Source: Hysterium pulicare CBS 123377
Lineage: Eukaryota > Ascomycota > Dothideomycetes > Hysteriales > Hysteriaceae
DNA: 64,000 nucleotides
Assembly: GCA_000467715.1 (NCBI GenBank)
Contig: AJFK01000618.1
Location: forward strand, 53,423-117,422
Direction of reading: 5' to 3'
In this document: positions 12,955 through 62,820 of the stretch, piece after piece
Layout: every line of letters begins with the position of its first letter
Numbering within the stretch: position 1 is the first letter of the stretch
The notes under the pieces: generated by a model
Databases searched by the model: none
The model's input: only the letters and a program-made list of their open reading frames with translations
What the model was told of the DNA's origin: nothing
Made by a program: the position numbers and the translations under genes

Positions 12955-13929
12955 ATGGACGGCCTATCCATCACCAACAACTGCGTTGGTCTGATCAAAG
13001 ATATTCCAGATGGCTGCAACACCATTTTCCGCTTTATCCGAGATGTTCGAGATTCGCGCAGCGATCTGGATCAAGTTTCATCGGAACTGTCGAGCTTGAA
13101 GACGATCCTAGAGTTACTGGCTGAGGATGCTGCGGATCCGGGGGCCAAAACTTTCCCTCCTAAGATTGAGGCACAGACATCTGGAGTTATTACTAAATGC
13201 AAGGATGTTGTTAAAGAGATGGAAGCGCTTTTGAAAGGCGGGAAAGAAGGAGGATTTGATAAAGCGGTGTATTGGAGCTTAGTAGGGAGGGAAAGCATGG
13301 CTAGGCTACATTGCCGTCTGGATGGTTATAAGGCTGCGCTTGAGATTGCTCTAGAAATGGCCTCTCTGTGAGTCCAATGGTTCTAGAGAGAATCCGCCTA
13401 GATTGACTCTCTATCCAGGTCCTTATCCAGGGACATCCATCAAGACACTCAAGAGCTCAAGAAAAGCACTGCGGCCATCGAAAAAGATATAGACGAACCG
13501 AAAAGCAATGCATTGTCGACAAAACAAGATACGTCACAAATTCTCCGAGAGATAGCTCTATTGCAAGCGCAACTACCCCGAAAAACAGATGGAATGCTAT
13601 CCGAGTACCTAGAGGGTCTTTCTGATTACGCTGAGAGCGTCTATGCGGACGAGCAGATGATCGAATGCGGATCGTCTCATACGGATGTAGCTCAATCACG
13701 GTCTTCCAAGGATTGGATATCCTTTACTGATACACAGAGTCCGCCTCCATCGCCTACATCTCAGGGATTAGGATACCAGCATGCATTCGGCAACTTAAAA
13801 GCTCCTTTGCGTAAGCTTCAGTGTCGATGCGACAACCGGAGTCTGGCTTCAGCTACCGACTCTAGAAAAGCGTACCGACCAATAACAGCCCACCTCGAGT
13901 CCCATATAGATCCTATTCTAGATAAATAG
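12955..13929 (+). CDS. HeLo-like fungal N-terminal domain protein
   Basis: Exons 12955-13367 and 13419-13929 (51-nt intron) give 307 aa to a TAG at 13927-13929. The start MDGLSITNNCVGLIKDIPDG, with the following helices (IRDVRDSRSDLDQVSSELSS, LKTILELL), looks like the Helo_like_N family. That family sits at the N-terminus of fungal STAND and death-related proteins, where the helical bundle acts in signalling or membrane attack. A coiled segment (LKKSTAAIEKDIDEPKSN) and a Ser-rich linker follow. The sequence after the TAG stays in frame and continues as plausible protein, so the real product may be longer (see next entry). Function is inferred from the domain only. Confidence 0.65.
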
Positions 13930-14678
13930 TGTTTGCCTCAATACCGACGCAAAAACCCCCAAAAATGTCTTCGGAACCTGTGCAAGGAGATAAGAAATCT
14001 GCTGTTCTGGACAAGTTCGAGTATACTCAGGCGAGAAGCCCATGTATCAAGAGAAGCACACTCTCAGAGCATTGGACAAATAGCCAATGTAATGCGCGAA
14101 GAGTCCATTGAGTTACTTCTATGGAGTTACGAAGCAGTATGTTCATATCGACTCCCCCCTAAATCTCCAATATTTCAGTTTCTAACTCCAAAAAATCTTA
14201 GATCACACCCCCAGTACTCCAGCGAATAATAAAATCATCCCGCCACATCTCCCTTTCAAACCCCGCTACTCGAAGCCCAACCTTACCCATTCACAAGAAC
14301 AACTCTCCCTCACCTCCTCCTGAACCCCTATCCCTAATCAAAAGAGCAATAACCAGCATCCCTCTCCTCCTCCTCCCACTTTCCATCCTCCTCCACCTCT
14401 CCGGCTTCTCCGGCATCTGCGCCATCCTAACTATTGCGTGGATAGCAGCATTTCTCGCAGCAAGGAAACTGCTGACGGGGCCATGGCGCTTCGAAATCAT
14501 GCTTCTAGCTGCCGCGTTGGCGTGCTGGTCTTCTCTTCTCATGTCCGATGGATCTGAGACGCGTTACGGAGCTAGTGAGTCGGGGAGCATGATGGCGCCT
14601 GGTGTGCAGTTGAACTGGACGATGTCGTTCTCCGGGAGGAATACTTCGCGGTTGTATTCTAGTGCTTTTGTTGCGTAG
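13930..14678 (+). pseudogene. In-frame continuation of the HeLo-like gene: two-TM C-terminus beyond a TAG
   Basis: Directly after the TAG the same frame stays open to 14136, is joined by a 65-nt intron (14137-14201, with a CTAAC branch) and runs to TAG 14676-14678. Ignoring the first TAG, the three exons total 1608 nt and 535 aa with all phases matching. The tail has a hydrophobic hairpin (LLLLPLSILLHLSGFSG, ICAILTIAWIAAFLAA) and a second segment (FEIMLLAAALACWSSLLM). No GT-AG intron with good sites and the right phase removes the TAG. Options are a recent nonsense allele, a sequencing error, readthrough, or a separate gene starting at ATG 14092 (173 aa). Confidence 0.5.
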
Positions 14679-17035: not shown

Positions 17036-20000
17036 TCATTCATCTTCATCCTCGTCGTCAACAATCAATCTCCTCGCCCTCACCCTAGGTCCAGCAACAG
17101 GTTCTGCTTCCTCATCCTCATCCTCATCCTCGCTTGAGTCCACCGCAAAAGGTTTTGTCTTGCTGGTCACGCGTTTACCCACAGACTCAATCTCATCCCC
17201 ACTCATAGTCCTCCTCTCACTGCTCACAACGAAGTCGGGCATCTCCTCCACCCCATCACTAGTAAAAAGCTCACGCGCCCTAACTCGCTCCCTCGACCCT
17301 GCGGGCAAACTTGAGCTGAACACTTGAACAGGCTCTTCGTCATCGGCAATGAAACTTCTCAGGTCAGAATCTAGTCTTGGGTCATCGTTATCGTATCCGC
17401 GTTCAGACCCCGAGGTATCGTCTGACCCGAGAGAGACCGCTTGAGAAGCAATACGCATGCGAGGATCGGTAGGTGGAGGACTGCTTGATGCGCCCTCGTC
17501 AACTAGATCGGAAATTCGAAACGATTGAGGGCGCGCTGTTGTTTGCGCTTTGTTGCGTCGAGCGGGAGTAGTTGTAGCTTTGCTGACTGTGGTAACTGCA
17601 GGACGAGAGCGCGGCTGCGCAGCCTTGGCTTTTGGCGTAGGCTTGGATATAGGTAGAGGTTCAGGTTGTGAAGGAGGAACTTCGTCGTCAGTATCAGAGA
17701 AGTCCGGCATGGCGATGTTAGTTAATTTACTCGGGGTTTTCGGGTTGGACTTGGACCTCGGAGCTGGCTTTGGTCGAGCCAGAGAAGCTTCGTCTTCGGA
17801 TTCTAGGCTTGAAATATCAGACACGATGAAGTCGTCTGTGCCTCCTTCCTCCAAGTCGGAGTGATGGAGATTATTCTTGAGACATTCAAGAGAATTATCA
17901 TCTATCGCATGTATGCGGCGAAGCATTTTGACCATAGACACAGAAACACGTCCTGGTCGCCCAAACTGTTCCGTCTTGGACACGATGCGTTGCCGATGTG
18001 GATGAGCTGCAAGATTGAGCGCTTCGACCATAGGTGATTCATCGTCGTCGAATACGGTCTGATATCGACGTTCTAAATCTTTTGACTCTTCTGCATTGAG
18101 AAGAACAGTCTCAAGTGGAGCCCACACAACCGGTTCTTCACCTGGACGCACTGCTGGTGCCTTCTTCCTGGCGCGCGAACGAGGTGCTACAACTCCACCA
18201 TCTGGATCACCCATCCGTGACACCTGCACAAACCCTGTAATGACATTATCTGGCATGTGAAACTTCTTTGGCGGGCGTTTTGGCGCTCTGCCATCTCTTC
18301 TTTTTGGTTCTGGTAGTTCAAGCTGAGAGTTCTCCAATGGAATCTCGACTGCGCGCTTGTCCACCACAGGCTGAACATCTTTGGGAATGATCTTGCGTGA
18401 GCGGTCCTCGTGGAATGTAAATCTAGATCCATTCGCAATCATCTCTTGCATCTTCTCATAATTATCCTTGGCTTTCGTTGCGTCATCCTCTTCCTTGCCT
18501 TTCATTTGAAGAAGAACGATTTTGCCTTCTCGCTTTCGTCCCGTTCGACCCATGCGCTGAAGCATGCGGATGGGGGAAGCTTTCGAATCATAGCAAATGA
18601 TAAGATCGACCTCGCCGATGTCCAGACCCTCTTCACCGATAGAAGTAGCGACGAGTGTGTTGAAGACACCCTTCTTGAATTTCTCGATGACTTCCAACTG
18701 CATCTTCTGATCCATTCCATCCGAATTCTTCGTACCGGCTTGACCAACGAAGACATGGGGCCGGATCATTGGTTGGTGACGTTTCAGAATTCGCACAATC
18801 TCTTCGGCGCTGTCTCTGAAATGCGCAAATACCATAATGCGGGTTTCTGAAGGTGGTGCGCCGTCAGGTCTCCTCCCTTCTGAAGCATTGACAAAGTGAT
18901 CAAGGATTACTTGCTGAAGGAAATCAAGTTTTGGATGTCCGATGAAGTGGTCGTTGTTCACCCAGGTATGCAGCCTAACCATGAGTTTCGAGAAGTGCTC
19001 GCTATCGCATATTTCCCTCTTGTATTTTGACTTGCTCTCCTCGTTAGATTCCTTGAACTCACGCAGCTTTGTGTAGAAAGGTCCCATGCTGTGGTATTTG
19101 AGCAACTCCATGCTATGCGAAAGACTAGCCAGAATGGTAAAGATTGTGTTGACCATGCTCTTGATTGGGAAACTCGCTTTGCGCCCAGCCTCACTGGCCA
19201 TCCACTGCTGCCGAGCTATCGTGCACCCATATGGAGTCAGATCCACCGGATCCTTTTTCCAATATACGTTCATACCATTCAGCTTACCCAGGACGGGCTG
19301 AACGGCTTTCGCGTACAAGCCCATGCACATCTCCATCTCTTCAGAGTTCTCGAAGACATGCTTTTCGATCTTTCTTTTGTGCACGTAACCACGAATATCC
19401 AGAGAGTTCTCAGTTCTGATTTCGACCCTCGAAATGTCTAGTCCGTCTATGACTTTCTGAACTGATTCGACATCAGATCCAGGTGTAGCGGTAAGCGCTA
19501 GTACCCGAAAGCTTTCATTGAAACGTCGAATGAACTTAACGACTTCCACGTATGCGTAGCCGCCGGTTGCTCGATGGGCTTCGTCGACCACAATAAGTAC
19601 AATTCTTTTCGGGTCACAAATACCAGTCTTCAAGTCATTGATCATCGTTTGTGGTGTCATGAAGAAAACCCTCTTGTCCGCCCATTCTTCAGCTCTGATA
19701 CCTGGCGCGACCCCACCGGTGAGCATAGATGTATACGAACGAGGGATACCAGCAATGCCAAAGCATGCCTCCACCTGCTGAGAAACAAGTGGTTTGGTAG
19801 GGGCCACAAAGACGATTTGAGCGTCTTTGGTCCAGCGGAACCAGTTCAGCATGATTGTTGCGGCGATGAAGGTCTTCCCTAAACCTGTTGGCAATGCTAC
19901 CAGAAGGTTATGGAAAAGCCCTCGAGCCACGATGTTGAATTGGTAGTCTCTTATTGAGCCGAGATTGGTTGGATAGACCCAGGTCTTCATTGCTTCGTTG

Positions 20001-21148
20001 TCCAGTTTGTGATGTGTCGGAGGCTCCTGCTTTTGGGACGAAACAAAATTGTAGCGCTTGTTGACCTGTGATGGTCGAATGGCCTCTCCCGCTCCTCTAC
20101 CGAACAACGTTGTCTGACGCAGTCCAGCCTGGGGAGCTACCAATCGCCCGCGTATTCCAGGAGACGCCTGAGAGGAGATGGAAATCACTTCGTCGATCTG
20201 CTTCTGGGGAGACGATGAAGAAGACGCGAAAGCATCTGATGGAAGATCAGCCAGTTCCTGAGCAGCGTCAAATGCTGACGCATCTCTGTTTGGCGTTGGA
20301 AGATTTGGTGTCGTAAAACTTTCAGTCGCTGCCCTTAATCTACCATCTGGAACTGGGAGAAAATCTTCGCCTTCGATAGTTTGCGGAGCTTGATCTAGAT
20401 TTGACGGTTCAGGCATTTGTCTGAGGCCGATGCTTCTATCATCTGCTGGAGACTTCACTGGCTTCTTCCATATCGGTCCTCTCAGTTGTCCAGGACTCGA
20501 ATCAAGTGGCGGGGGTTGCGTACAGAATACATCTCGTAGATCCAATGTCTTGCTCGGGACATGAATCCGATGCTTCGACTTCTTCTCGGACTTTTTAGAT
20601 GGCGATGCTGATTCTGGCCCGGGAGTCTGATTCTCTTTACCTTTTCGAGGACGCCCTCTCTTCCTCTTTGCGGTCGTACTGACTGATGTGGCGGTTGTCG
20701 ACTGACCTAAATCAAGATCTGTTGATGATTGACCAGCTTTGCTATTCTTCCGCCGCTTTGGAGTGAAAGCCGATGCAAACGGTGCAGGATCTATCTCATC
20801 TTCTGCGATGGTGTGTCGGTTCTTCTCGCGGTTGAGTGAAGTTGCAAATGGGGCAGGGTCCAAGGCGTCTTCATCCGAGTCGTCGTTCACTCGGGTAGAA
20901 CTCCGGCGCTTCTTAGAAGTGAGAGGACGATCATCTTCACTCTCGCTGTCGGCAATCACCTTTTGTTGATTTTTGTCCTTTCGAGCTTTGCTTGGCGGAA
21001 TGTGGAGATTTTCATGGGATGGATCGATTCTTCGCCTCTTCTGCGGCCTGGGTGATGGCAGGAATGAGGTGGTTGCCTGCTCAACCTGTGTAGCGACCTC
21101 CAGAAAGTCATTATCGTCAACTTCCCCGAAGTCCTCGCTGTCGGACAT
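17036..21148 (-). CDS. MPH1: ATP-dependent DNA helicase Mph1 (FANCM family)
   Basis: An intronless gene of 1370 aa. The start ATG at 21148 gives [18 protein letters not shown]. The N-terminus is long, basic and disordered. The SF2 helicase core follows: [11 protein letters not shown], motif I PTGLGKT (K425), DEAH at 522-525, motif III ALTATPG, then the family insert and the C-terminal half with [22 protein letters not shown] and motif VI [12 protein letters not shown] from Q864. Mph1/Fml1/FANCM remodels stalled forks and D-loops in the nucleus and limits crossovers. The C-terminal ~400 residues are Ser/acidic-rich and end in DDEDEDE, with repeated GAD codons. The gene is divergent from a small secreted-protein gene. 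Confidence 0.94.
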   Translation of the reverse strand: [1370 protein letters not shown]

Positions 21149-21655
21149 TATGTGCCATTGACAGCACAATAAAGCTGTAAATGAAGTTGGAAGGTTTTAG
21201 TGTCGTTGTGTTGGCTCCGACGCGTGACTTCACCTGCGCCGCGTTCTGGTCGTGGCGCGTCAGAGATGCAGAGCTAATTCCAAGGTTGGCGGAAGATGCC
21301 GAGGCTGCAGGGTCCGGTTTGTAAACAAGGGTGATGATCTCGGGTATGGGCGCTAAGCCCTAAGCGGTATCGGCTGCTTCTGTCTTTGGCGAATACGAGC
21401 CAATGGCGTCGGTCCCGTCCCCTGTGCCATTTCCGCAATAAATTGGTACGGCCCCAGCATCTCCTCATGCATCCTCCTTTGACTGCGTCACCTTTTGTAC
21501 CTACACTCCTTATACACTCATTATATCTTCGTTTACCATTTGAATTTGATTCACACACTCGCTACAATTTAATTAAGCATATTCTTTAATCTAGCTTTAT
21601 CACTATCCAATAGCATTCTTTACCATCTACCTAGATCCTATCATCACAAGCAAAA
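21149..21655. promoter_or_regulatory. Divergent promoter region, MPH1 and GPI-type protein
   Basis: 507 bp between the two start codons. The part nearest the plus-strand ATG (21530-21655) is A/T- and C-rich with CAAAA immediately before ATG, a favourable fungal start context. Confidence 0.5.
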
Positions 21656-35594: not shown

Positions 35595-38500
35595 ATGTCG
35601 TTGCGGTGGTCGAGTTGCACCTCTAGTCTGAGTCACTCAATTTGGACGGAGAGCTTCACGACTTTCACCACACGCCAGGTTCGGAGCAAACAATCTCGCT
35701 GCGGAGGTTTCAGACATCGTCAAACGACCAATTTCACCTTCTACGGAGTTCGCAGGTACACGCGGAACGCAGTGAGCGCCAGAGGCCTGCGCACCATGGC
35801 CGAGTCTTCTGTTATGGAGGAGAATCACAAGTGGAGTGCCTCCAGGGTGCGGGAGACGTATTTGGAGTATTTCAAAGAGAGAGGGCATACTTTCGGTGTG
35901 TATATTGTCATCTAACCCTCTATTGCTTCAAAATCTATCCCTCTACAATCTCTCCTCACCTTCTACAGTACAATTATGAAAAGAACCTCAATTAACCCTC
36001 CCAGTTCCCTCCTCGTCCGTCGTTCCTCTCTCCGATCCAACCCTTCTCTTCACCAATGCCGGCATGAATCAGTACAAGTCCATTTTCCTAGGCACAGTAG
36101 ATCCAGCTTCCGATTTCGCCTCGCTCAAACGCGCCGTCAATTCTCAAAAGTGCATTCGTGCGGGTGGGAAGCATAATGATCTGGATGATGTAGGTAAGGA
36201 CAGCTATCACCATACGTTCTTTGAGATGCTGGGGAATTGGAGCTTTGGGGACTACTTCAAGAAAGAGGCAATTGAGTTCTCTTGGAACTTGCTCACCAAG
36301 GTGTACGGAATTGACCCCGCGAGATTGTACGTCACATATTTCGAGGGCTCGGAGGGCTTGGATCCGGATCTAGAAGCTAAGGAGCTGTGGAAGAAGGTCG
36401 GGGTGCCGGAGGACCATATCTTGACTGGAGACATGAAAGATAACTTCTGGGAAATGGGAGACCAAGGACCCTGTGGGCCCTGCTCCGAGATCCACTACGA
36501 CCTCAGGGAAGTCCCGGAGGGACAGAAGATGCGGAATGCCGCAGATCTAGTAAACAAGGACGATCCTGAAGTCATTGAGATCTGGAATAATGTTTTCATC
36601 CAATATAACCGCGAATCGGATCGCTCGTTAAAACCTCTGCCGAATAAACACGTCGACACGGGTATGGGCTTTGAGCGCTTGGTCTGTGTGTTGCAGAACA
36701 AGAAGTCGAATTATGATACGGATGTCTTCACGCCGCTGTTCAAGAGGATACAGGAGATCACAGGGGCACGAGAATATAGGGGCAAGTTCGGAGAGGAGGA
36801 TCCAGATGGTATCGATACCGCGTACCGCGTTGTCGCTGATCACGTCCGCATGCTCAGTTTCGCCATCGCCGACGGTGGCGTTCCTAATAATGTCGGTCGA
36901 GGTTATGTCGTCCGTCGCGTGCTGAGGCGAGGAGCGAGATACGCTCGTAAATATTTCAGCACGGAGATCGGTGACTTTTTCTCGAAAATTGTCCCGAGTC
37001 TAGTCGAACAGATGGGAACTATGTTCCCGGAAATCAAAAAGAAAGAAACGGATATTAAGGAGATTCTAGACGAGGAGGAGAAGTCTTTCGCTAAGAGTCT
37101 AGATCGAGGCGAAATCATGTTCGAGAAATACGCACAGAAAGCGAAAGTACATGGCTCGAAAGATCTTCCTGGCACGGATGTTTGGAGGTTATACGATACG
37201 TACGGTTTCCCTGTCGACCTAACGAAATTGATGGCGGAGGAGCGCGGGCTTAATATCAACGACGAGGAGGTTGAGGAGGCACAAGAGAAGGCTAGAGAGG
37301 CGAGTAAAGGTGACAAGAAAGCTGCGGCTGCGCTTGTCAAGCTGGATGTGCATGACCTTGGCGCGCTGGAGAACATGCATGAGGTACCGAAGACAGATGA
37401 TTCTGCGAAGTTTGGGCGAGAAAACATCACTGCGGTCATCAAGGCTATATACCACGAGAAGAAATTCTTACAGAGCACGACTGAGATCCCAAGGGGTGAG
37501 CAATTCGGTGTACTGCTTGATAGGACGAACTTTTATGCCGAGCAGGGTGGGCAGGAGTATGATACTGGACGGTTGGTGGTAGACGATGGTCCAGAGATGA
37601 GGGTAGAGAATGTACAGGTGTACGCAGGGTATGTCTTACATACGGGAGAACTCAAATACGGAGACCTCAGTGTAGGAGATGAGATCATCTGCGAGTACGA
37701 GGAAGTAAGTCTACCAACTCTCTTCTCTATCCAATCTCCCAATATCTCTTCAGCCTACTAACCCAAATTCTGTTATAGCTCCGCCGCCATCCAATCCGCA
37801 ACAACCACACTGGAACACACATCCTCAACTATGCCCTCCGAGAAGTCCTTGGCAACGAAATCGACCAAAAAGGCTCCCTTGTTGCCCCAGAAAAACTCCG
37901 CTTCGACTTTTCTCACAAATCTGCCATCTCCGATTCCGACCTCTCCAAAATCGAGGTCATTTCCACCTCCTACATCCGCCAGAACTCTGAAGTCTACGCT
38001 CTTGATGTGCCACTTGCGACCGCGCGGCAGATTCGAGGCGTCCGTGCTGTTTTCGGCGAAACATACCCTGACCCCGTGAGGGTTGTGTCCGTAGGCGTGC
38101 CAGTCGAGGATCTATTGGCTGATGTGAAGAACGATGGATGGGAGAAAGTCTCGGTCGAATTCTGTGGCGGAACTCACGTCAAACAAACAGGTGAAATCAA
38201 AGAACTCATCATCCTCGAAGAATCCGGTATCGCGAAAGGTATCCGACGCATCGTTGCCGTCACAGGCCAAGAAGCACACGATGTGCAGCGCATCGCGTCC
38301 GACTTCTCAGACGAGCTCTCCAGGCTCGGAAAACAGGCATACGGACCTGAGAAAGAGGCCGAAGCGAAGAAGATGCAAGTCAGACTGAATCAACTCTCCA
38401 TCTCCGCGATCCAGAAATCCAAATTCCGGGATCAGTTCGCTAAGATCCAGAAGAGTATCTTGGATGAGCAGAAGACTGCTGCGAAGGCGGAGAATAAGCG

Positions 38501-38994
38501 CGTGTTGGATGCTGTCACGGGTTTTTTCAAGGAAGACGGGAATAAGGCGAAGAGCGTGCTTGTTAAGAAGGTGGACTGGAGTGGGAATGTTAATAAGGCG
38601 ATCAGTGAGGCGATCAAGAGTGTCAGTGGCGCGAAGAGCGAGTGGAAGGATAAGTGCGTTTATCTGGTGAGTGCGAGCGGAGAGGAAGGGAAGGTGGTGC
38701 ACGGATGTTATGTTCCTGAGGTAAGTTCTTCTTCTTTTCTTCCCCAATCTCGACCAATCTTCGTCATCTTCTCTTCCTTTACTTGCAGTTAAGGAGATTG
38801 GTTACTAATTCATGGAACAGCAATTCTCCACCAAAGGGGCCTCCGCGGCCGACTGGTCCAAACAAGTTGCCGGCATCATTGGCGGCAAAGCTGGTGGTAA
38901 AGGGGCTACGTCTATCGGCCAGGGCACTAATGCTGATAAGGTGGATGAGGGTGTGGAGGAGGCGAGGAAGTATATTGAGAAGTTCACGCTCTGA
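35595..38994 (+). CDS. ALA1: Alanyl-tRNA synthetase, with possible mitochondrial presequence
   Basis: Exons 35595-35895, 36005-37704, 37779-38720 and 38821-38994 (introns 109, 74, 100 nt) give 1038 aa from the first ATG or 971 aa from the second (35796, [13 protein letters not shown]). The class II core shows [52 protein letters not shown] and DTGMGFERL. The editing domain has HTGTH (677-681) and FCGGTH (C796, H800) for hydrolysing Ser- and Gly-tRNA. The C-Ala domain ends with [15 protein letters not shown]. The 67 residues before the second ATG are rich in Arg, Ser and Thr with few acids, like a mitochondrial presequence. The second ATG has the stronger context (CACCATGGC), so both cytosolic and mitochondrial forms from one gene are likely. 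Confidence 0.95.
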
Positions 38995-60130: not shown

Positions 60131-61070
60131 ATGGCGCCACTGAAACCCAAGGCAAAGAAAGCATCCAAGGAAAGCACCAAGACCGGCAGGGTCCAAAAGT
60201 ACAAGGCGAAACCGGCTCTCAACCTGAAGAAGCCATGGACTCCGGGCACCAAGTTCGGCAAGCTAGAGCTTGCTGAGGATGGGCTCATGAATCTCAATGC
60301 TCCGCTTCACTATCCGCGTATGGTCAAGTACGATAGCGGCATCCGTAGAGAATGAGAGGTTGCATGATGCTAACTTTGGTAGGGCCGGTCAGAACCAGAC
60401 AGATTCGCCATTACTGCGATTACCGGCAGAGATTCGTCAGGTCATCTTCCGCTATGTCCTGGGCGGCCGGTTCATCTTCATCTACAGAGCCAACGACGGC
60501 GCCACGCGCTATTGCCGACTCTTGAAGAAGTGGGTACCGAAGATGAACTCGATGAGCTTTCACGACAAAGATATGGGTGAAAAGAGGGGAATATTCTGCT
60601 ACAGGAATATAAAGATCGAGAAATCTGCACGGCTCTCATCAGTCTGTCGCCAATTATACACGGATACTGTGGCTTTGCCTTACGCTCTGAACACTTTCGG
60701 TTTTGAGAACGATTTTGCCATGGAGACATTCCTGATGTGTCGGTTGCCAGTGCAAATGAATGCTATCAAAGCCATTCAGCCGTCTCCCGAGTACATGTTT
60801 CGATATTACCATTCCGATGAGCCAGAATTCTATCAGAAGTTCTCGAACCTAAAGTTTCTATATGTCACCTCAGACTTATTTACCTCGCTTACATCGCTTA
60901 CAGAGCTTTTCAATAACCCGAAAGTCAATCCTATGGATGCAGCGAAGATTAAATTCGAAACTAAAGAAATGGGGCAGGTTAAGGTCCTTCCTACCTATGA
61001 CTTCTCCTCATCGATATCGAATTGTCTCATGAGGGCGGTCAGATGGCATTTGTACCGAAAAGCAAAATGA
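60131..61070 (+). CDS. LPAEIR-family protein 4 (DUF7730-like)
   Basis: Exons 60131-60327 and 60383-61070 (55-nt phase-2 intron with a GCTAAC branch) give 294 aa. Exon 1 is basic (KPKAKKASKESTKTGR) and ends LMNLNAPLHYPRMVK, clearly related to the LLDLNAPATYKRMK of gene 5, so these two are closest relatives. Exon 2 opens with DSPLLRLPAEIRQVIFRYV, then GGRFIFIYRANDGAT, SSVCRQLYTDTVALPYALN, FGFENDFAMETFLMCRLPVQ and a Ser/Ile tail. The conserved Thr-Ala-Leu-Leu reads TVAL. Transcribed in the same direction as gene 5, about 0.8 kb away. Confidence 0.83.
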
Positions 61071-61890
61071 TTGGCAGAGGACGAGCAATCGAACGGGATA
61101 ATCCTCTAAGTTGGAGTGGATCTCGCAAGTTTAGGTCACAAGGAAATGCGTCGATGGCACCTACTCCGAGCCAGTTTCGAGTCAATTACAGTATCGTAGG
61201 CTCTGCTAGGGAGAAAATGGAGGGTTGAGGTCTCTCTCCAAGTATGGCAAACAGCAGTAACCTTGATATGGATCAGCAAACGTATTTCGAGATAGCTCCA
61301 AATCATGTCGTTCGTTGAACGACCTTATTATCGGGCGCGGATATACCTGAGTCTGCAGGGTATACAGAGCATCATATGCACCATCAACTACCCAATCTCG
61401 GTTTTATGGCAAGCGCCTATCAAAAGCATCAGCATTCTTTTATCGGCCCATTATCGATCATGATACGGAATACTCACCTAACCCCTGGCGTTCTTTGGTT
61501 TATTTCATTACCAACATATTCTACAATCATGCGATTCATGAACAGAGCATTGAAAACCCCCCACAAACATTCACTCTTATATAGAATTGCATCAAAGGGA
61601 AATGGGACTATTCAATTGATCATACCAAACCAACCTTTTCACACTGAACCGTAATACAAACAGTGAAATAGACGTGTGGATCGAAGTGACCAATCATGAC
61701 CTGATACGGTGAGACCAAGCGGACAAGAATGATACCACTTTATTTCGACACTTCACTTGCTCTTTCTATGAAGCATTGACCACTTCGAGTTGTTGTTAAA
61801 CAAAGACCTTTTCCACCTTGTCCTCTCTTCCTTCCAGTGCTTCCGTCCTCACATCATTACCACGGTGCAACCTCACCTCTGCACCCAGCA
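61071..61890. promoter_or_regulatory. Intergenic, LPAEIR gene 4 to gene 5
   Basis: 820 bp. The first part continues the gene 4 3' flank. The region just before gene 5 is C/T-rich. A weak CTTATATAG-type sequence lies near 61577. No other feature. Confidence 0.4.
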
Positions 61891-62820
61891 ATGGCCCCAA
61901 AAAAGCCAGAGGGTGCTCCACCACCCAACCTACCAGCAATCAAGATCCCAACCGCTCAAGACAATGCCGCCTCGAAAGTCAAGAAGCCATCAACTCCAAA
62001 GACTCCCAAGTTCCCTCGAAAGCGCCTGGATGAGAACAAGCTGCTCGACCTGAATGCTCCAGCTACTTACAAGCGGATGAAAATGTATGTCAGACATTCG
62101 GAAAGCATGAGAGTAAAGAAACTAATCGTTCGTTTCAGAGCGGAGATCAACCGTACCTCATCCCCACTCCTCCGTCTCCCAGCCGAAATCCGGAACAAGA
62201 TCTTCGGGTACGTGCTCGGCGGACACAACATCCACATCAAATTGATAATGCCTTACACAATGCTCGTGCACCGGAGGATCGTGTACAAAGTGAGCGCGCC
62301 TGCATATCGAGAGAGCGATTTCGTGGCTTGCCCGGTCACATACCACGAGCCAGTTATGGCGCGATATCGGACCATCGCCGGTGTCTGTCGTCAGATCTAC
62401 GACGAAACAGCTCTGCTTCCCTACGCCCTCAACATCTTCAGCTTCGAGACTTCGGAGTGCTTTGATCAATGGATGATATGCCGTTTGCCCATGCAAGTGT
62501 TTGCTATCACGAGGGTTTCGGCGAATCACAACCTCCACAGGTACATTAATTGCAGACATTTTGGTTTCCCAAGCGAGTTTCCGGGTCTGGAGGTGCTTTA
62601 TCTTCCGCTAGGAGACCTTCTTTGGCACGAGAAGCACAAGGCGAATGTCAAAAAGGCTGCTGAAGACTTGGTAGCTGAAATTGCGAGGGGAGCAGAAGGT
62701 AAGTTTCGAGTCGAAGTCGTCCATCAAAATGACCCCGTGCCCATAGCGCACCAGACCGGGATGGGAGTCTATTACACTCGGCCTCCCCACCCAGCGCAGC
62801 AGCCCAAAATCGGAGCCTAG
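61891..62820 (+). CDS. LPAEIR-family protein 5 (DUF7730-like)
   Basis: Exons 61891-62084 and 62139-62820 (54-nt phase-2 intron) give 291 aa. Exon 1 is Pro/Lys-rich (PSTPKTPKFPRKRLDENK) and ends LLDLNAPATYKRMK, as in gene 4. Exon 2 opens with TSSPLLRLPAEIRNKIFGYV, then GGHNIHIKLIMPYTML, AGVCRQIYDETALLPYALNI and SFETSECFDQWMICRLPMQ. The C-terminus is longer (RVEVVHQNDPVPIAHQ, and Pro-rich to the end). The intron is a multiple of three and has no stop codon, so retaining it would insert 18 residues between the two exon-encoded parts. Best conserved member. Confidence 0.84.
   Translation: MAPKKPEGAPPPNLPAIKIPTAQDNAASKVKKPSTPKTPKFPRKRLDENKLLDLNAPATYKRMKMYVRHSESMRVKKLIVRFRAEINRTSSPLLRLPAEIRNKIFGYVLGGHNIHIKLIMPYTMLVHRRIVYKVSAPAYRESDFVACPVTYHEPVMARYRTIAGVCRQIYDETALLPYALNIFSFETSECFDQWMICRLPMQVFAITRVSANHNLHRYINCRHFGFPSEFPGLEVLYLPLGDLLWHEKHKANVKKAAEDLVAEIARGAEGKFRVEVVHQNDPVPIAHQTGMGVYYTRPPHPAQQPKIGA

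What the first reader, a model, noticed from the sequence alone, without database searches (positions are those of the whole stretch)
12955..14678. HeLo-like protein and two-span membrane tail in one frame, split by a single TAG
Seen in sequence: the frame continues without another stop from exon 2 through the TAG at 13927-13929 to 14136, then across a good 65-nt intron into a 159-codon exon. The total without the TAG is exactly 536 codons. The tail encodes two hydrophobic segments. I checked GT-AG introns that could remove the TAG: the only consensus donor (GTAAGC, 13811) is out of phase with nearby acceptors, and phase-compatible alternatives have poor sites. Established knowledge: HeLo domains in fungi are linked to membrane-targeted cell death. 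Inference: this could be a HeLo-membrane fusion architecture, silenced by one base change. A CAG to TAG change fits a CpA-to-TpA mutation as made by RIP.
Basis: partly seen in the sequence, partly recalled or inferred. Interest (0 to 1): 0.72.

Follow-up and report, generated by a model that had tools for sequence, protein, structure and literature searches.

The report
Interrupted HeLo-like gene with membrane tail
A fungal gene from a family tied to self-inflicted cell death looks as if it once ran on into a membrane-spanning tail but now has one stop signal in the middle, most likely an ordinary, recently broken gene copy.

Summary
The frame described is real. Exons 1 and 2 (12955-13926) encode a 307-aa HeLo-like (Pfam PigL_N) plus coiled-coil protein whose first intron keeps the position and phase seen in three paralogues of the same genome. 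Past the TAG at 13927-13929 the frame stays open for 69 codons, crosses a strong 65-nt intron, and enters a 158-codon exon with three (not two) hydrophobic spans. These resemble, below Pfam's cut-off, the membrane end of DUF6594 proteins. The whole pattern occurs at 0 of 117 control ORF ends, so the two halves were probably one gene. Two corrections: 536 codons includes the TAG and the final stop (534 sense codons), and one good in-phase intron does remove the TAG (13811-14214, 404 nt). RIP is not supported. Against the one-gene reading, codon usage in the 165 nt after the TAG looks non-coding, so a short separate downstream gene remains possible. Best reading: a young nonsense-interrupted copy of a HeLo-like/membrane-tail gene. 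Rivals: separate gene, long intron, sequence error, edited stop. Premature stops in HeLo-type genes are documented (het-Vb, Neurospora). No other fungal genome, read or RNA data could be searched, so the cause of the TAG stays open. Interest is modest.

The parts
12955..13367 (+). Exon 1: HeLo-like (PigL_N, PF17111) domain, starts at ATG
   Evidence: Pfam 25.9 bits for exon 1 alone (cut-off 27.2), 28.8 bits for the spliced 307 aa; four paralogues at 39-44% identity; codon score fits coding
13368..13418 (+). Intron 1, 51 nt, phase 2
   Evidence: GTGAGT..CAG; same position and phase in paralogues L057, L058 and L059
13419..13926 (+). Exon 2 up to the TAG: coiled-coil region shared with three paralogues, then a Ser/Pro-rich linker
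   Evidence: 13420-13659 scores as strong coding, 13660-13926 weaker
13927..13929 (+). In-frame TAG
13930..14136 (+). 69 codons open in the same frame after the TAG; in-frame ATG at 14092-14094 could start a separate gene
   Evidence: coding statistics weak before 14092
14137..14201 (+). 65-nt intron, phase 0
   Evidence: score 20.5; 0 of 44 control positions inside true ORFs offer a 43-120-nt intron that good
14202..14678 (+). Terminal exon (158 aa plus stop): membrane tail, DUF6594-like
   Evidence: Pfam PF20237 20.1 bits, E 6.8e-4, cut-off 30; three hydrophobic spans
14334..14390 (+). Hydrophobic span 1
   Evidence: KD 1.71; model helix 42-66
14406..14462 (+). Hydrophobic span 2
   Evidence: KD 2.19; model helix 70-88
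14490..14546 (+). Hydrophobic span 3
   Evidence: KD 1.74; model helix 96-114
13811..14214 (+). Alternative 404-nt in-phase intron that would remove the TAG
   Evidence: score 15.0; 3 of 44 control positions reach that by chance

Best explanation
One ancestral gene: HeLo-like four-helix domain (PigL_N) - coiled coil - Ser/Pro-rich linker - short helical stretch - three-span DUF6594-like membrane tail. In this genome it is interrupted by a single in-frame TAG after codon 307, most likely a recent nonsense mutation (a loss-of-function allele or very young pseudogene). Shown: the frame, the introns, the HeLo-like family match, the three hydrophobic spans. Inferred: the halves were once one protein, the TAG is genomic and is not removed, and the function. 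The working protein would have been tethered to a membrane by its tail, with the HeLo-like bundle and coiled coil on one face as an oligomerising, membrane-perturbing module held where it acts. The interrupted copy would give at most a soluble 307-aa HeLo-like/coiled-coil fragment, or little if its mRNA is decayed.
For: Same-frame continuation, then a strong in-phase intron, then a long open exon: 0 of 117 control ORF ends. Intron 14137-14201 scores 20.5, reached at 0 of 44 control positions. Intron 1 is conserved in position and phase with three paralogues. In the paralogues exon 2 runs on into C-terminal domains (WD40 in L058 and L059, ankyrin in L060, no Pfam match in L057), so a C-terminal domain after the coiled coil is usual in this group. 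The tail frame is by far the best of its three frames (+0.3 against -80 and -38 bits). One stop in 534 codons means little decay. Literature: het-Vb, an MLKL/HeLo-domain gene, is polymorphic for pseudogenised and full copies in some Neurospora lineages, with taxon-specific premature stops (PMC9262711, passages).
Against: Codon usage after the TAG (13930-14094) is non-coding-like, at the 0.3% point of true coding stretches, -4.1 bits against +1.0 for another frame, and two of the three frames are open there. The tail too is weak (1.8% point). The tail and the 69-codon stretch have no second copy in the genome and no relative in the viral or prokaryotic contigs searched, so conservation could not be tested. 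The DUF6594 likeness is below cut-off, and 27 of 2000 block-shuffled tails score as high on a local profile, 31 of 500 on an earlier, shorter one.
Confidence: 0.5

Rival explanations
1. The TAG is the true end of a complete 307-aa HeLo-like/coiled-coil protein. The membrane exon belongs to a separate short gene (ATG 14092, 173 aa, one intron), or is not a working gene.
For: Coding signal falls away around and after the TAG. ATG 14092 gives the best second-gene model (17.6 bits). 307 aa is a plausible size for a HeLo-like effector (recalled).
Against: Needs the downstream exon chain to be in frame and open back to the TAG by accident: 0 of 117 ORF ends show that. Only 162 nt would separate stop and start. 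The downstream protein's start has no independent support.
Confidence: 0.22
2. The TAG lies in an intron: 13811-14214 (404 nt) is spliced out, giving an intact protein of about 421 aa with the HeLo-like domain and the membrane tail.
For: Canonical GTAAGC donor, CAG acceptor with a CTAAC branch site, in phase, score 15.0 in the normal range. It also explains the poor coding signal of 13930-14094.
Against: 404 nt is far beyond the training introns, although these were sought only up to 120 nt (43-119, median 57). 3 of 44 control positions give an equal score by chance. It swallows the much stronger 65-nt intron 14137-14201. Gene finders are known to place unsupported introns to avoid stops in HeLo-type genes (PMC9262711, passages).
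Confidence: 0.13
3. The TAG is an error of sequencing or assembly and the gene is intact.
For: A single base separates the two halves; only one assembly is on hand.
Against: Nothing else points to poor sequence: the one apparent frame break in a conserved gene that was checked (alanyl-tRNA synthetase) is a good intron, score 22.1.
Confidence: 0.08
4. The stop is overcome in the RNA or by the ribosome: sexual-stage A-to-I editing of UAG, or stop readthrough, makes the long membrane form only at some stage.
For: Over 70 genes of Fusarium graminearum need such editing; it prefers U at -1 and A or G at +1 and +3 (PMC11156358, parts 1-2 of 3 read). Here +3 is G; U at -1 and G at +1 hold for any UAG and tell nothing.
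Against: The A is in an unpaired stretch, not a hairpin loop, in the 61-, 101- and 146-nt folds; it is in a loop only in a 29-nt fold of -0.1 kcal/mol and in a stem in the 41-nt fold. The editing is reported from Sordariomycetes and a Pezizomycete and was not found in Botrytis or A. nidulans; the class of this fungus is unknown. UAG-U is not the UGA context described for fungi in PMC4207609 (start of abstract seen in a listing; the exact context is recalled).
Confidence: 0.05

Closest known systems
Fungal HeLo-like (HELL / PigL_N, PF17111) multidomain proteins
   Same: N-terminal PigL_N match over cut-off, four predicted helices, coiled coil after it, modular C-terminus; four paralogues in the same genome.
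   Different: C-terminal part is a membrane tail instead of WD40 or ankyrin repeats, and the frame is interrupted.
het-Vb of Podospora/Neurospora (MLKL/HeLo plus TUDOR)
   Same: HeLo-type N-terminus with a different C-terminal domain, and copies broken by premature stops (PMC9262711, passages).
   Different: C-terminal domain is TUDOR, not membrane; het-Vb is tied genetically to incompatibility, this locus is not.
DUF6594 (PF20237) fungal proteins
   Same: Three hydrophobic spans in order, and an LLT..xRxEI motif between spans 2 and 3.
   Different: 20.1 bits against a cut-off of 30; no match to the N-terminal two thirds of the family.
HET-S / HELLP cell-death executors
   Same: Helical-bundle N-terminal domain family linked to membrane-targeted death (PMC12881547 and PMC3531502, passages).
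   Different: No PF14479 match, no hydrophobic N-terminal span by Kyte-Doolittle (maximum 0.78 in the 307 aa), no amyloid motif seen with one simple pattern.

Membership tests
PigL_N / HeLo-like (PF17111) | Profile match over the curated cut-off | tested here: met
   28.8 bits against 27.2 for the spliced 307 aa; exon 1 alone 25.9, below; 29.7 in the six-frame genome search
PigL_N / HeLo-like (PF17111) | Domain at the extreme N-terminus | tested here: met
   Profile position 1 aligns to residue 1
PigL_N / HeLo-like (PF17111) | Four-helix bundle like MLKL/HeLo | tested here: inconclusive
   Four helices in a single-sequence model, pLDDT 60.6; PDB matches are assorted helical bundles, none at E 0.001 or better, mostly receptor sensor domains and designed proteins in the second look
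PigL_N / HeLo-like (PF17111) | Induces cell death at membranes | not testable with these tools
   Needs experiment
HeLo (PF14479) HET-S type | PF14479 match | tested here: not met
   Not listed at E up to 1
HeLo (PF14479) HET-S type | N-terminal segment predicted to span the membrane | tested here: not met
   No 19-mer above 0.78 in the 307 aa (one simple hydropathy scale only)
HeLo (PF14479) HET-S type | C-terminal amyloid signalling motif and a neighbouring NLR gene | tested here: inconclusive
   One RHIM-like pattern only; 20 of the 61 window ORFs of 150 aa or more scanned, none NACHT or NB-ARC
DUF6594 (PF20237) | Profile match over cut-off | tested here: not met
   20.1 bits against 30, 20.0 with the upstream 69 codons added
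DUF6594 (PF20237) | C-terminal hydrophobic spans collinear with the family | tested here: inconclusive
   Collinear alignment, but 27 of 2000 and 31 of 500 block shuffles score as high
DUF6594 (PF20237) | N-terminal region of the family (profile 1-160) | tested here: not met
   Match covers profile 165-234 only
RIP-mutated sequence | RIP dinucleotide signature and a repeated sequence | tested here: not met
   Indices 0.70 and 1.39; one DNA copy
Pseudogene | Uninterrupted homologue elsewhere plus a lesion here | not testable with these tools
   No other fungal genomes on hand; no relatives in the two contig collections searched

The most novel reading that the evidence does not exclude
The TAG is a regulated switch: a soluble HeLo-like/coiled-coil form is made when the stop is obeyed, and a membrane-anchored form carrying a DUF6594-like tail when it is overcome (edited UAG in the sexual stage, or alternative splicing of 13811-14214). 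The fungus would thus choose when a cell-death-type domain is tied to a membrane.
Probability: 0.05. Interest if true: 0.75.

Novelty: new member of a known kind. Interest (0 to 1): 0.3.

Why it matters
If the joined reading holds, it joins a HeLo-like domain to a membrane tail resembling a fungal family of unknown function (DUF6594; no paper in the library holds that name), which hints at where DUF6594-type membrane ends may act. If the copy is simply broken, it is one more case of loss in fungal HeLo-type genes, as already seen in het-Vb. Either way it is a caution: an automatic gene finder could hide the stop with an intron or report two genes.

Tried and rejected
RIP as the cause: rejected on indices and copy number. 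Consensus GC-donor introns spanning the TAG: one consensus GC donor in the stretch searched (13563), too far upstream, not pursued. Donor 13929, which overlaps the TAG: donor score 2.4, near the lowest of the training set. Two-intron chains that skip the TAG: the best, 13811-14083 plus 14137-14201, scores 26.9 bits against 30.7 for the reading that ignores the TAG, but its first intron scores 8.5, below the training minimum of 10.6. The scores are close and the weights are mine, so they decide little; the top chain of all (27.0 bits) ends at the TAG.

Relatives outside the genome: none for the tail in genome contigs or viral contigs, none for exon 2 in viral contigs (prokaryotic and viral collections, so little weight). 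PDB by sequence: nothing below E 0.8 for exon 1, one hit at E 1.3 for the tail. Fold search of the exon-1 model: MLKL or HET-S chains do not appear among the 50 rows shown of 365 Foldseek matches or the 50 shown of the second look; helical bundles match widely, so this says little. A membrane tail in other PigL_N loci: 27 loci of about 3.4 kb plus 10 longer regions overlapping some of them were scanned; the best match to the local DUF6594 profile was E 0.043 at L044, which on reading is a separate membrane ORF after a stop. Five of the 37 sequences had an ORF of 90 aa or more with two or more hydrophobic spans (L044, L048, L057, L060, L066); only L044 was followed up. A tail match at L065 (E 0.0073) aligns outside the spans and lies upstream of that gene, so I took it as chance. 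NCBIfam: nothing.

Limits of the controls: training introns were picked partly by consensus and some overlap; the codon training set is 62 ORFs from held sequence.

Full report
What is there. The window lies in a fungal-type genome of 37.2 Mb in 596 contigs whose name is not given. An ATG at 12955 opens a frame that loses a 51-nt intron at 13368-13418 and ends at a TAG at 13927-13929, giving 307 aa. The intron's position and phase are the same in three paralogues (L057, L058, L059), so the gene model up to here is firm. The 307 aa match Pfam PigL_N (PF17111, also called Helo_like_N in PMC9815663) over the cut-off. The genome holds 28 matches to that profile at E 0.01 or better, 17 of them marked over the cut-off. 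The four closest paralogues (39-44% identity) continue after the shared region into WD40 repeats (two), ankyrin repeats (one) and a part without a Pfam match (one).

Past the TAG. The same frame is open for 69 more codons to 14136. There a 65-nt GT-AG intron with a CTAAC branch site leads, in phase, to 158 codons ending at 14678. This intron scores 20.5 on a model from 66 introns of held sequence, whose median sum is 16.6. Inside true ORFs, 0 of 44 test positions offer a 43-120-nt in-phase intron that good. Among 117 ORF ends with enough sequence downstream, none shows the combination seen here (open past the stop, in-phase intron scoring 18 or more, then 100 or more open codons). Openness alone is weaker evidence: 8 of 135 ORF ends stay open for 69 codons, 15% (383 of 2552) of all 207-nt stretches of the window are open, and 1.4% of sequences generated from the same composition.

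Counter-evidence. Codon usage is clearly coding in exon 1 and 13420-13659 and weak after that. For 13930-14094 only 0.3% of true coding stretches score as low, for the tail 1.8%. With a Markov score the tail's frame is neutral (+0.3) but far above its other frames (-80, -38), while 13930-14094 is -4.1 with another frame at +1.0, and that other frame is open too. So the region between the TAG and the ATG at 14092 may not be coding, which keeps the two-gene and long-intron rivals alive.

The tail. It has three hydrophobic spans, also three helices in a low-confidence model (pLDDT 55.7). Pfam lists DUF6594 at E 6.8e-4 but 20.1 bits, under its cut-off of 30, over its C-terminal end only. The alignment to genome DUF6594 members is collinear, with LLTGPWRFEI against LLTNARRhEv-type sequence between spans 2 and 3. 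On local profiles the tail beats most but not all block-shuffled copies: 31 of 500 shuffled and 29 of 500 reversed-and-shuffled score as high on the first profile, 27 of 2000 on the second. I call it DUF6594-like, not a member. The tail and the 69-codon stretch occur once in the genome.

Why the TAG? RIP is not supported. Sexual-stage A-to-I editing of UAG stops is a real process in some ascomycetes (PMC11156358, parts 1 and 2 of 3 read), but the predicted hairpin preference is not met in the longer folds and the class of this fungus is unknown. A plain nonsense mutation has precedent in this kind of gene: het-Vb, an MLKL/HeLo protein gene, is polymorphic for pseudogenised and full copies in some Neurospora lineages, with different taxa bearing their own premature stops, and annotations there insert unsupported introns to avoid them (PMC9262711, passages).

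How it would work. From the family (PMC12881547, PMC3531502, PMC9815663: passages only), HeLo and HeLo-like bundles target membranes and execute cell death when triggered. By inference, an uninterrupted version of this gene would hold such a bundle at a membrane through its tail, with the coiled coil for oligomerisation. The present copy would yield at most the soluble N-terminal part. None of this function is shown here.

Verdict.

Noticed in passing
window 17039-21196 (-): 1386-aa ORF with ResIII/DEAD and Helicase_C domains; no RNase III or Dicer match in this ORF, so its identity (for example an FANCM/Mph1-type helicase, recalled) is open.
   Followed up: no
window 60291-61067 and 61780-62817 (+): Two neighbouring ORFs both match DUF7730, a possible tandem pair.
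   Followed up: no
window 35980-38789 (+): Alanyl-tRNA synthetase split over two frames; a 74-nt intron (37705-37778, score 22.1) explains it.
   Followed up: yes
window 13932-14110 (+): Second open frame across the stretch after the TAG, with an ATG at 13965 in a CCAAAAATGTC context; the best splice from it to the tail is weak (6.3 bits).
   Followed up: partly
own genome, DUF6594 matches: 54 matched stretches of DUF6594 (several are pieces of one gene), many with stops inside the hit; these may be introns or broken copies.
   Followed up: no
L044/L071 (C577): A short N-terminal-domain gene (428-aa ORF) followed by a separate multi-span membrane ORF.
   Followed up: partly
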